Assembly: GCF_017656495.1 (NCBI RefSeq)
Contig: NZ_JACDNS010000002.1
Location: forward strand, 124,001 to 188,000
Direction: 5' to 3'
Source of the DNA: Thermococcus sp.
Lineage (GTDB): Archaea > Methanobacteriota_B > Thermococci > Thermococcales > Thermococcaceae
Length of the DNA: 64,000 bases
Below, piece after piece: positions 54,581-59,895 of this stretch. The position numbers were made by a program, and so were the translations under genes. The number at the start of each line of letters is the position of its first letter. Position 1 is the first letter of the stretch. Under the pieces are notes generated by a model that ran no database searches, had not been told where the DNA came from, and worked only from the letters and a program-made list of their open reading frames with translations.

Positions 54581-55330
54581 TTATTCTGCAATATCCAGAA
54601 CTTCAGCCTTCTGAAATTCGAGAATTTTCTCTGGCTTTATCTTTATTAAGCGGTCAATTCTCCCGCCGCCAGCTATTACGACATCTTTTTCAAGAACTCC
54701 ATTGTCAACTATCGTCTTAATTGGCACTCCCAGTGGTGGAACCTCCCCAACTTTGTATCCTGTAATTTTCTCGACCTCTTCTTTATTTGCCATTCTAACT
54801 TTCCCAAAGTACTTTGCGAGCTTTTCTAAGCTAGCTTTAGACTTTCCATCAACTATAACCAAAATCGGTCCTTTTTCTGTGATAAAGACTAGGGATTTAA
54901 CAACTTGTTCTGGTTTGACTCCTAAGAGCTTTGTAACCTGCTTGACGCTCCTAACTTCTTTTCCAACTTCAATTATTTCCCCTCCAAGCTCTTCAACGAT
55001 TTCTTGAAGTCTTATTTCCTTTGCTGGATACTTTTCCTCATTTTTCTTCAGCTTCTTTTCAACAGCTTCATCTAAGTCAATGCCGAGCTCATGAGCCAAA
55101 AGCGTGAGGTAAATTATTACATCAGCAATTTCATCCCCAATCTCTTCTTTAATCTTTGGATTCTTAACTTTCTCAAAAATTTCTTCGTTTGTATCCCACT
55201 GGAAATGCTCTAAAAGCTCTCCCACCTCTACGGCTATTGAAATAGCAAGGTTCTTTGGTGTATGATATTTCTTCCATAACCTTTTGTCTCGAAACTTAAC
55301 TGCCTTTTCCTCGAGCTCTTTAAAATTCAT
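54581..55330 (-). CDS. MazG-like pyrophosphohydrolase fused to YbaK/ProX deacylase domain
   Basis: 249 residues with two domains. Residues 1-103 are an all-alpha NTP-pyrophosphatase domain of the MazG/dCTPase type, with EVGELLEHF and EEIGDEIADVIIYL giving the metal-binding E-x2-E...E-x2-D set. Residues 106-249 are a YbaK/ProX-like aminoacyl-tRNA deacylase domain, with the conserved lysine in VVKSLVF (K145) and the glycine-rich VIAGGGRIDR. One part would clean non-canonical NTPs, the other mischarged tRNA. No frameshift is seen at the joint. It overlaps the next gene upstream by 11 bases. Confidence 0.82.
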   Translation of the reverse strand: MNFKELEEKAVKFRDKRLWKKYHTPKNLAISIAVEVGELLEHFQWDTNEEIFEKVKNPKIKEEIGDEIADVIIYLTLLAHELGIDLDEAVEKKLKKNEEKYPAKEIRLQEIVEELGGEIIEVGKEVRSVKQVTKLLGVKPEQVVKSLVFITEKGPILVIVDGKSKASLEKLAKYFGKVRMANKEEVEKITGYKVGEVPPLGVPIKTIVDNGVLEKDVVIAGGGRIDRLIKIKPEKILEFQKAEVLDIAE

Positions 55331-55607
55331 GTTCCTTCATCTCCCTCAGCATTGTAAGATATTTTAAAAGTTCTTCAAACTCTTCTTTTGAAAATCTTTT
55401 CTCAACTTCTTCATTCGGATCGAGTTTCATGAGGTAGTCCTTTATTCTATTCAGTCTATCAAGCTCATCCTGTAACTCTAAAGAGCGCTGTGTAAATTCC
55501 CAACTCGTATGTGGGCTTTCAAATACTCTCTGTTTGCTAACAACTATTGCAACTTTGACGTTTGCTATTGCCTCGTCAACAAGTTTCAAGAGCTCTTTAA
55601 TTCTCAT
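55320..55607 (-). CDS. Hypothetical 95-residue helical protein
   Basis: Not recognised. Almost entirely helical and charged, with a coiled-coil-like second half (about 45-92). Its stop overlaps the start of the MazG-YbaK gene, so it is the first gene of that pair. Possible promoter in the AT-rich gap at 55610-55640. No known domain. Confidence 0.6.
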   Translation of the reverse strand: MRIKELLKLVDEAIANVKVAIVVSKQRVFESPHTSWEFTQRSLELQDELDRLNRIKDYLMKLDPNEEVEKRFSKEEFEELLKYLTMLREMKEHEF

Positions 55608-55715
55608 TTTTAAGCCCCTCTAATTAATAGCCACAGGGATATTTAAGATGCTCGGCAACTGAGATAAATGAAAAACTTTTAAACTTTAGTGAAGAATCTA
55701 ATCACGGTGATGATC

Positions 55716-55973
55716 ATGGATTTTGCCCTCTTCATGGAGAGGTATGGGTATAAGTTACTTCTTGGATTGATGGCTCTTGCAATAATAGTGGTTGTTGGAA
55801 TACCAATACTCGGCTACCTATACTTCCTCCGGAGATACAGCTGGGAAATTGGGGGGCTGATGCTAATAATAGTGGTGGTTTACGCTTTCTCAGTTAGGAG
55901 AAGAGTCATGGATGCCTATGCCCAAGCACATGGGAAGTACTTCTATGATGACAAGTGGTACAAGAGGAGATGA
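55716..55973 (+). CDS. Small two-helix membrane protein (MDFALFMERYGYK type)
   Basis: Not recognised. 85 residues: N-terminal MDFALFMERYGYK, two membrane helices (about 14-35 and 46-62), then a basic, aromatic C-terminus (RRRVMDAYAQAHGKYFYDDKW). ATG 55716 is four bases after GGTGATG. TTTTAAAC near 55680 is a possible TATA box. It is followed at once by a shorter relative. Confidence 0.6.
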   Translation: MDFALFMERYGYKLLLGLMALAIIVVVGIPILGYLYFLRRYSWEIGGLMLIIVVVYAFSVRRRVMDAYAQAHGKYFYDDKWYKRR

Positions 55974-55979
55974 CTCTCT

Positions 55980-56084
55980 TTGGATTTTGCGCTTTTCATG
56001 GAGCGCTATGGATACAAAGGTGCATTTTTAGTTTTACTTGTGCTTTTGATAATTGTTTTTAGATTAGGAGAACAAGAAAGCTAA
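55980..56084 (+). CDS. 34-residue membrane microprotein, relative of the gene before it
   Basis: An open frame from TTG 55980 to TAA 56082-56084 coding for (M)DFALFMERYGYKG, one membrane helix (about 14-27) and the end RLGEQES. The first 12 residues after the start are identical to those of the 85-residue neighbour although codons differ, which argues for a real gene kept by selection. GGAG at the end of the previous gene may be the SD. It is too short for standard gene finding. Confidence 0.6.
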   Translation: MDFALFMERYGYKGAFLVLLVLLIIVFRLGEQES

Positions 56085-58069: not shown

Positions 58070-58753
58070 TTATTCTTTCCATACCTCTAGAACCATGAAA
58101 GTCCTAGCTACTGGATTGGGATAAAGCTCCCAGCCAATTCCTTCATTATTCGACTCTATTTCTCCATACAATCCACCTTCTCTGGGATCTAAGCTTTCAC
58201 CGTAAATTCTGCTTTCATGAATTTCAACTCTCATGTACCTTGGCAAACCAATTCTTATGCTCCCTTCTTTTCTCGCATATTCTATCGCCCATTTTGCTGA
58301 ATAAATTCCAGCGTAAATTTCTGCAATCCTAACAGCTACGCTGTCCTTTCCAATTGCCAAAATCTCTATCCCAGTGTCTTCCCAAAAGCGCTTTGCTAAA
58401 GGCTGTAAATCTTTGCTCAGCTCATGCCATATTGCTTTGCCCCTATCTGAGATTCTTAATGCATCTATTGTTGGATCATCAAGTTTTCTGAGTTCTATTC
58501 CACCTAAGCTTGAATCTAGGTGAATTACATCTGGTTTAACTTTCTTAGCGAGCTTTATGGCTAGAAACACTTCATCTTTAATTGCCTCTCTCCCACTTAA
58601 ATCGTAGTTAAATGGATCAGCGTATTTCACTATGCTCATTGTTGCTGTTTTGTAGGGTTTTTCAACAAGCACAGCGGCAGTTGCTATCAGTCCTGTTGGG
58701 TCGTAGTTCTCATCCAGCACAGCTCCTCCAGTGTCAGCTGAAACTATCCTCAT
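58070..58753 (-). CDS. DUF4152-like protein
   Basis: 227-residue cytoplasmic protein, likely of the Thermococcales DUF4152 family. It starts MRIVSADTGGAVLDE with an acidic residue at the end of the first strand, and has VIHLDSSLGGIELRKL; both look RNase H-like, with Asp residues that could bind metal, but this is inference. GAGGTGA precedes the ATG at 58753. It is convergent with iorA, 8 bases between stops. Function unknown. Confidence 0.6.
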   Translation of the reverse strand: MRIVSADTGGAVLDENYDPTGLIATAAVLVEKPYKTATMSIVKYADPFNYDLSGREAIKDEVFLAIKLAKKVKPDVIHLDSSLGGIELRKLDDPTIDALRISDRGKAIWHELSKDLQPLAKRFWEDTGIEILAIGKDSVAVRIAEIYAGIYSAKWAIEYARKEGSIRIGLPRYMRVEIHESRIYGESLDPREGGLYGEIESNNEGIGWELYPNPVARTFMVLEVWKE

Positions 58754-58824
58754 GCTTTCACCTCGTTAATTTCTCATTACCTAAAAGGATTAGGGGGGTA
58801 GTATATTTAAGGGAAGTGATTTGT

Positions 58825-59220
58825 ATGGAGAAGAGTAGTGAAATCTTGAGTCTCTATTTGGATATGCTCTCGGGTGGTCTTTATCTTGGTAGTGTAAAAG
58901 GTAGTATTTCCGTGGTTGTGGAGGATAAAGAAGTCCCAGTGATTTCTCCGACTCCTCAACCCATGTTGGATATATTTTGTAATGAAGATAGCTTAATTTT
59001 CTTTGGATTTTGGAAACATGGAAAAGAAGCAGAATATGGGTATGTAAAGATTCCTCTTAAGCGTATAGAGGTTATAGAGGAAGCTAATGAAGAACTTATA
59101 CTCTATGTATTTTCTGAAAAAAGAACCCAAGATAGTATAGGATTTGTTAGAATTGATCTATACCCTGAACCTGTGGTTAAAGAAAAAATTCTCGAGGTGA
59201 TTGAATTTGAGAGAACTTAA
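58825..59220 (+). CDS. Unknown protein A of a paralogous pair
   Basis: Not recognised. 131 residues, soluble, predicted beta-rich with a helical end. The core (residues about 10-85) aligns with the protein encoded at 59434: LYLDMLSGGLYLGSVKG against VYIDNLCGSLHIGTTRG, and MLDIFCNEDSLIFFGFW against LIDIFYKSHSLEFMSFW. ATG 58825 is chosen because GTATATTTAAGGG (58799-58811) lies just upstream and GTGAT is a weak SD. An open frame continues upstream on this strand but is antisense to the DUF4152-like gene. Confidence 0.6.
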   Translation: MEKSSEILSLYLDMLSGGLYLGSVKGSISVVVEDKEVPVISPTPQPMLDIFCNEDSLIFFGFWKHGKEAEYGYVKIPLKRIEVIEEANEELILYVFSEKRTQDSIGFVRIDLYPEPVVKEKILEVIEFERT

Positions 59221-59317: not shown

Positions 59318-59428
59318 ATGGAAGGTTTCCAAATAAGTGAAGGTTACACTCACTTTTGTCCGTATTATACAATCAGTTCGTATTATAGAAATAAATTCTG
59401 GTGGACTATGCAGTATATAAGGTGGTGA
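59318..59428 (+). CDS. Possible 36-residue leader ORF
   Basis: ATG 59318 to TGA 59426-59428, starting MEGFQISEGY and rich in aromatic residues (Tyr, Phe, Trp). GGGGAGGG is upstream, and the TGA lies within the SD of the next gene (GGTGGTGAT), so translation could be coupled. TATA-like TTTTTATAG at 59288 would place a start near the ATG. No homologue known; may be chance. Confidence 0.3.
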   Translation: MEGFQISEGYTHFCPYYTISSYYRNKFWWTMQYIRW

Positions 59429-59433
59429 TTAGC

Positions 59434-59895
59434 GTGGATAAGCTATATTCCAATGTAGAAAAGACCCTAGGAGTATATATCGACAACCTATGTGGGTCAC
59501 TTCATATAGGGACTACAAGAGGAACAATGTTTTTGGTTCACAAAGACAAGAAGTATCCGATCATATCTTCCAAGACAGTTCTCCCGCTCATTGACATATT
59601 TTATAAATCACATTCTCTGGAATTCATGTCGTTCTGGAGAGAAAATGGAAAGAACATGTATGGATATGCAAAGTTTGCAGTATCGAGAATCAAAGTTTTG
59701 GAGGAAAAAGGAGACTATCTAGTCCTTGCAGTGGAACCCCATGGCTATATGATAAGGGCCAATGTATACGTGATAATAATCCTGTGGACAGTTCCGGGTT
59801 TCAAGAAAACTCTATTTAGACTGCTTGAGGAAGAAAAAGATTGGGAAAGCGAAGATAACTGTGGTATCATAGATTCTTCGTATCTGCTTCCCTAG
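59434..59895 (+). CDS. Unknown protein B of a paralogous pair
   Basis: Not recognised. 153 residues from GTG 59434 (SD GGTGGTGAT); an upstream in-frame GTG at 59401 would add 11 residues. It shares the core fold with protein A at 58825, and both keep F-W and YGY-K near residues 65-85. Protein B is longer at the C-terminus and has a hydrophobic stretch (VYVIIILWTVPG, about 113-124). The end overlaps the next, convergent gene by 4 bases. Confidence 0.6.
   Translation: MDKLYSNVEKTLGVYIDNLCGSLHIGTTRGTMFLVHKDKKYPIISSKTVLPLIDIFYKSHSLEFMSFWRENGKNMYGYAKFAVSRIKVLEEKGDYLVLAVEPHGYMIRANVYVIIILWTVPGFKKTLFRLLEEEKDWESEDNCGIIDSSYLLP

What the first reader, a model, noticed from the sequence alone, without database searches (positions are those of the whole stretch)
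55716..56084. Twin micro-membrane proteins sharing the N-terminal motif DFALFMERYGYK
Two adjacent small genes (85 and 34 residues) begin with the same 12 residues encoded by different synonymous codons, followed by different membrane helices. The 34-residue gene starts at TTG and would be missed by gene finders. Strong conservation of the cytoplasmic N-terminus suggests that it docks to a common partner.
Basis: seen in the sequence. Interest (0 to 1): 0.7.

Follow-up and report, generated by a model that had tools for sequence, protein, structure and literature searches.

The report
Tagged small membrane proteins of Thermococcaceae
Heat-loving archaea of the family Thermococcaceae make many small two-helix membrane proteins that all begin with the same twelve-residue tag but otherwise differ; the window holds one intact copy and, next to it, a second copy that recently lost half of its length.

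Summary
Two adjacent frames (85 aa, ATG 55716; 34 aa, TTG 55980) share residues 2-13, DFALFMERYGYK, with seven silent differences.

ORF1 belongs to an uncharacterised family: 81 of 94 Thermococcaceae genomes, none of 21 others in the class, no Pfam, NCBIfam, PHROGs, PADLOC or PDB match. The tag directly follows the start codon and precedes about a dozen different two-helix bodies with class-specific C-terminal tails. pN/pS in ORF1 orthologues is 0.04 in the tag and 0.51 in the body. Tags of neighbouring paralogues differ freely at silent sites, so protein selection, not gene conversion or a DNA signal, keeps the tag.

The 34-residue gene is not a distinct micro-protein type. Two sister genomes carry the same TTG-started gene at 68 aa with two helices; the window copy lost exactly 102 bases in frame just behind the tag, and its ribosome-binding site is weaker. 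Broken copies are common in the family, so decay is likelier than a new function.

Best mechanism, inferred: the tag is a cytoplasmic helix continuous with helix 1 that binds a shared partner or membrane site, while the class-specific tail supplies the specific function.

The parts
55670..55684 (+). Candidate BRE/TATA promoter element (gaaaaacttttaaac) of ORF1
   Evidence: Read by eye; identical in all six same-genus genomes aligned. Not tested experimentally.
55706..55711 (+). Shine-Dalgarno-like site of ORF1 (GGTGAT)
   Evidence: Duplex energy with anti-SD AUCACCUCCU -8.6 kcal/mol, family median -8.4. The anti-SD sequence is from general knowledge; it was not found in this draft genome.
55716..55973 (+). 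ORF1: 85-aa two-helix membrane protein, class 0 of the family, intact
   Evidence: orthologues 93-96% identical in five same-genus genomes and about 35-60% elsewhere in the family; predicted helical hairpin H3-41/H43-76, mean pLDDT 88.
55719..55754 (+). N-terminal tag of ORF1, codons 2-13 (DFALFMERYGYK)
   Evidence: Position-wise conservation; pN/pS 0.04 against 0.51 for the body.
55926..55949 (+). Conserved C-terminal tail motif of class 0 (A-x-x-K-Y-F-Y-D), cytoplasmic side by the positive-inside rule
   Evidence: A71, Y75 and Y77 invariant, K74, F76 and D78 at least 90%; tail carries the most positive charge.
55965..55973 (+). Weakened Shine-Dalgarno site of ORF2 (AGGAGATGA) overlapping the last codons and stop of ORF1
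   Evidence: -9.1 kcal/mol against -16.4 for AGGAGGTGA in sister genomes G088 and G090; still within the family's normal range.
55980..56084 (+). ORF2: 34-aa remnant of a 68-aa tandem paralogue (class 5), TTG start, internal in-frame deletion
   Evidence: Alignment with G088 and G090; intact forms in L070 and L073.
55983..56018 (+). N-terminal tag of ORF2, codons 2-13 (DFALFMERYGYK)
56017..56018 (+). Deletion junction: 102 nt (34 codons: helix 1, loop, start of helix 2) present in sister genomes are missing here

Best explanation
ORF1 is a member of a Thermococcaceae-specific, uncharacterised family of small membrane proteins (about 80-107 aa). Shown: one 12-residue N-terminal tag, M-D-F-x-L-F-M-E-R/K-Y-G-Y/F-K, placed directly after the start codon, is shared by about a dozen otherwise dissimilar two-helix bodies, and is kept by purifying selection on the protein. 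Predicted: the protein is a helical hairpin with both ends in the cytoplasm, and the tag is a cytoplasmic extension of helix 1. Inferred: the tag is a common docking or address segment recognised by one partner or membrane site shared by all classes, while each class's C-terminal tail provides its specific interaction, so the proteins act as membrane-anchored adaptors. ORF2 is a tandem duplicate of an ORF1-like gene that lost its C-terminal tail earlier and, in this genome only, lost 34 codons including helix 1; it is most likely a decaying copy in a family with frequent gene birth and death.
For: Family and range: 81/94 Thermococcaceae genomes, 0/21 others of the class. Register: in 137 of 138 occurrences ATG, GTG or TTG stands directly before the D; the exception is a broken copy. 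Selection: pN/pS tag against body 0.041/0.511, 0.087/0.445, 0.011/0.284 in three types. Tandem neighbours' tags are nearly saturated at silent sites, which excludes recent duplication or conversion as the reason for identity. Two-ended conservation, class 0: mean pairwise identity tag 0.92, hairpin 0.34, tail 0.55; class 2: 0.87, 0.49, 0.67. Topology: most K and R in the tail; hairpin models for two classes, one confident, one weak. ORF2: 102-nt deletion against both sister genomes; nine other broken short copies.
Against: No partner is identified and no gene neighbour is shared by all classes. Some high-quality genomes (G015, G035, G070, G073) have no member, so the function is dispensable. 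In classes 1 and 3 the tail is not better conserved than the hairpin (0.51/0.54 and 0.62/0.65). The tag could serve self-association rather than docking. ORF2's frame is still open and its ribosome-binding site still of ordinary strength, so it may be translated.
Confidence: 0.55

Rival explanations
1. The tag is a self-association element: paralogues of different classes co-assemble through it into homo- or hetero-oligomers, and there is no external partner.
For: Tandem, closely spaced copies with different bodies would be co-produced; the tag is predicted as a helix continuous with TM1, which suits a helix bundle.
Against: Many genomes carry only one copy and keep the tag. Helix 1, which would extend any such bundle, is poorly conserved.
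Confidence: 0.2
2. The tag is an n-region sorting or insertion signal read by the membrane-insertion machinery, working like the bacterial YSIRK signal motif that sends dissimilar surface proteins to the division septum.
For: Same layout: a conserved motif at the extreme N-terminus, directly followed by a hydrophobic segment, shared by proteins with different bodies. YSIRK precedent: PMC5962339, PMC11898559 (abstracts).
Against: No NCBIfam signal-motif family matches; the class-specific tails suggest that the whole hairpin is the mature protein.
Confidence: 0.2
3. ORF2 is a functional 34-aa single-helix protein, for example a competitor that occupies the tag's partner without delivering a tail.
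For: The deletion is exactly in frame, the tag is untouched, the frame is open and the SD is still typical for the family.
Against: Found in one genome only; it removes one of two helices, so one end must lie on the wrong side of the membrane; the hydrophobic run between K13 and R28 is only 14 residues; the SD is weaker than in the sisters; broken second copies are common.
Confidence: 0.15
4. The tag is conserved for a DNA or RNA reason (translation start element, recombination site) or is homogenised by gene conversion.
For: It always sits at the start of the gene.
Against: Silent sites in the tag vary as much as or more than in the body (pS 0.95 against 0.76) and tandem copies differ at most silent sites.
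Confidence: 0.02

Closest known systems
YSIRK/G-S signal-peptide motif of Gram-positive surface proteins (works like)
   Same: Short conserved N-terminal motif directly before a hydrophobic segment, shared by proteins with unrelated bodies; there it sets the place of secretion (PMC5962339, PMC11898559, abstracts).
   Different: YSIRK signals are cleaved from wall-anchored proteins of bacteria; here the tag sits on tiny, apparently uncleaved two-helix archaeal proteins, the sequence is different and no family model matches.
Small regulatory membrane proteins that bind larger complexes, such as AcrZ, KdpF and CydX (from general knowledge)
   Same: Size, one or two helices, presumed accessory role.
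   Different: Those are unrelated single families, each bound to its own complex; here one tag is shared across about a dozen bodies and no partner gene is linked.
Phage holins, small membrane proteins
   Same: Size and hairpin with charged tail; weak PHROG and Pfam holin scores (E 0.004-0.02) for single members.
   Different: All scores lie below the curated Pfam cut-offs and match only hydrophobic stretches; no viral contig or plasmid encodes a relative.

Membership tests
Thermococcaceae MDFxLFMERYGYK family (defined here) | Tag M-D-x3-[FL]-[MVL]-E-[RK]-Y-G-[YF] directly after the start codon | tested here: met
   ORF1 and ORF2; 137 of 138 occurrences family-wide.
Thermococcaceae MDFxLFMERYGYK family (defined here) | Two membrane helices behind the tag | tested here: met
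   ORF1: hydropathy and model. ORF2 fails this: one helix is left after the deletion.
Thermococcaceae MDFxLFMERYGYK family (defined here) | Class-specific conserved C-terminal tail (class 0: AxxKYFYD) | tested here: met
   ORF1 has AQAHGKYFYDDKWYKRR. ORF2 and its 68-aa parents lack it.
YSIRK or KxYKxGKxW signal-motif families | Match to the NCBIfam signal model | tested here: not met
   NCBIfam scans list no such model at E<=1 for ORF1 and ORF2 or at E<=0.1 for nine other members.
YSIRK or KxYKxGKxW signal-motif families | Signal-peptide cleavage | not testable with these tools
   Would need N-terminal sequencing or proteomics.
Phage holins | Holin profile above the curated cut-off | tested here: not met
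   Pfam Phage_holin hits at 15-16 bits against cut-offs of 25-28.
Known antiphage defence membrane proteins | PADLOC profile match | tested here: not met
   No match for eight members at E<=0.1.

The most novel reading that the evidence does not exclude
Thermococcaceae possess a modular set of membrane adaptors in which one nearly invariant N-terminal helix plugs about a dozen different C-terminal tails into the same hub, an archaeal address tag that has not been described; the window's 34-aa gene would be a natural tag-only competitor.
Probability: 0.35. Interest if true: 0.7.

Novelty: new variant of a known kind. Interest (0 to 1): 0.48.

Why it matters
A short segment kept almost unchanged while everything attached to it changes is a strong pointer to an unknown shared binding site. 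It gives a ready bait peptide for finding the hub in genetically tractable archaea (Thermococcus kodakarensis, Pyrococcus furiosus), shows that the profile libraries searched have no model for this family, and offers natural experiments in genomes with no copy, one copy, or only broken copies. The window itself shows one step of such a family's turnover: duplication, tail loss, in-frame deletion.

Tried and rejected
Gene conversion or a DNA-level element as the reason for the identical tags: rejected by silent-site counts. Known families: Pfam, NCBIfam, PHROGs, PADLOC and PDB sequence searches gave no match above cut-off; the best was ABHD16_N at E 1.4e-4, 22.3 bits under the 27-bit cut-off, for one class-1 member. 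Fold search of the ORF1 hairpin against the PDB: no match. Virus or plasmid origin: no relative in viral contigs or plasmids. Operon partner: class 0 lies beside iorA (indolepyruvate ferredoxin oxidoreductase alpha) in most genera, but iorA is on the opposite strand in several genomes, and in one genus the gene lies next to a different conserved gene; other classes lie beside unrelated genes (glycosyltransferase, M28 peptidase, MFS, PLP enzyme), so no functional linkage is claimed. Literature searches for the motif or for two guessed locus tags found nothing. Anti-SD check in the draft genome: pattern not found.

Full report
What is there. ORF1 (55716-55973, ATG, 85 aa) and ORF2 (55980-56084, TTG, 34 aa) lie on the + strand in the same frame, 6 nt apart. 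Residues 2-13, DFALFMERYGYK, are identical; the DNA differs at 7 of 36 positions, all silent. The register of the whole family places ORF1's start at ATG 55716 rather than the ATG at 55710.

The family. A protein search with ORF1 hit 79 of 94 Thermococcaceae genomes, a profile of diverse members 81 of 94 and 0 of 21 other genomes of the class. A degenerate DNA pattern for FME[RK]YG[YF][KR] hit 77 of 94, with zero hits for the reversed control and zero in the 21 outgroup genomes. I fetched 8-kb or shorter stretches around these places and read the members in six frames. Of 138 tag occurrences, 137 have ATG (97), GTG (34) or TTG (6) directly before the D; the exception is a broken copy. Part of the sampling used the tag itself, which inflates the conservation of FMERYGYK. 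D2 was invariant in 107 of 107 members in a count that did not require it, and among class-0 orthologues aligned over their full length D2, L5, F6, M7, E8, Y10, G11 and K13 are invariant. Weaker variants found with the profile show what is tolerated: M7 to V or L, F6 to L, position 13 to A, T, D, N, E or G.

One tag, many bodies. Clustering only the part behind the tag gives nine groups with two or more members and at least four further singletons, about a dozen body types, nearly all predicted two-helix proteins. Tails are class-specific: AxxKYFYD (class 0, ORF1), TH..EDW (class 1), EEGGKLY (class 2), FFMNRF (class 3), FGRYWYRWKR (class 4). Mean pairwise identity in class 0 is 0.92 for the tag, 0.34 for the hairpin and 0.55 for the tail; in class 2 it is 0.87, 0.49 and 0.67. 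In classes 1 and 3 tail and hairpin are about equally conserved, so the two-ended pattern is not universal.

Selection acts on the protein. pN/pS is 0.041 (tag) against 0.511 (body) in type 0, 0.087/0.445 in type 1 and 0.011/0.284 in type 2. Silent sites are saturated in the tag (pS 0.95 against 0.76 in the type-0 body), and tandem neighbours' tags show 2.5 to 9.5 silent changes over about six silent sites. This excludes recent copying, gene conversion or a DNA-level function as the cause of identity.

Structure and topology. AlphaFold2 on the class-0 alignment gives a helical hairpin, helices 3-41 and 43-76, mean pLDDT 88, pTM 0.55: the tag is the start of helix 1. A class-1 model is similar but weak, pLDDT 73. 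Most positive charge is in the tail, so both ends are most likely cytoplasmic. Foldseek found nothing in the PDB. No Pfam, NCBIfam, PHROGs, PADLOC or PDB sequence match passes its cut-off.

What ORF2 is. In two sister genomes, G088 (L073) and G090 (L070), the second gene has the same TTG start and the same last residues but is 68 aa with two helices. The alignment shows that the window copy lacks exactly 102 nt between tag codon 13 and the segment GAFLV, while the flanks are nearly identical. The other three same-genus copies of this locus have no second gene. The 68-aa form is 42-43% identical to ORF1 over 60 residues and lacks ORF1's tail, so it looks like an ORF1 duplicate that first lost the tail. 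The window copy has since lost helix 1 and the loop. Its ribosome-binding site changed from AGGAGGTGA to AGGAGATGA (duplex -16.4 to -9.1 kcal/mol), still within the family's range (median -8.4). The change is silent in ORF1 (Arg AGG to AGA). No other genome has the short form; nine other short tag-bearing frames are copies broken by frameshifts, other lesions or an insertion. Six tandem second copies, the window's included, are broken. Decay is the simplest reading, though the frame is open and translation is possible.

Arrangement. Tandem copies are separated by 4-10 nt, and in many of them the stop codon of the first gene lies inside the ribosome-binding site of the next, which suggests coupled translation. 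Class 0 usually lies next to iorA, but the orientation varies and in one genus the gene has other neighbours; other classes sit in unrelated neighbourhoods. The gene is therefore more likely a stand-alone unit than a subunit of a locally encoded complex.

Mechanism. Shown: the tag is fixed in position, protein-selected and shared by different bodies. Predicted: cytoplasmic helix, hairpin. Inferred: a shared partner or address. The layout resembles the YSIRK signal motif (PMC5962339, PMC11898559, abstracts) in what it might do, but membership was tested and not met. Self-association is the main rival. I put the docking or address reading, with ORF2 as a decaying copy, at 0.55.

Verdict.

Noticed in passing
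window 54581-55330 (-): MazG-like pyrophosphohydrolase domain fused to an aminoacyl-tRNA editing (YbaK-type) domain in one 249-aa protein; many other Thermococcaceae show only a frame of about 105 aa of this cluster at the same place, so the fusion or its gene calling varies by genus.
   Followed up: partly
window 55320-55607 (-): Conserved 95-aa gene beside ORF1, found in many Thermococcaceae loci, with no Pfam or NCBIfam match.
   Followed up: no
window 58612-59220 and 59401-59895 (+): Two adjacent frames of one sequence cluster (c7), paralogues in tandem, present in pairs in several sister genomes.
   Followed up: no
L138:4154-7841 (+): The second tandem copy of the tag family in G071 is split by about 3.6 kb holding three frames of one unknown cluster (c54); a similar frame stands behind the broken second copy in L139 (G072). 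Possibly an inserted element.
   Followed up: partly
L105 (G029:C1:1106800-1114800): Both tandem copies at this locus are broken by stops and frameshifts in a complete genome; G015, G035, G070 and G073 have no member at all: natural knock-outs.
   Followed up: no
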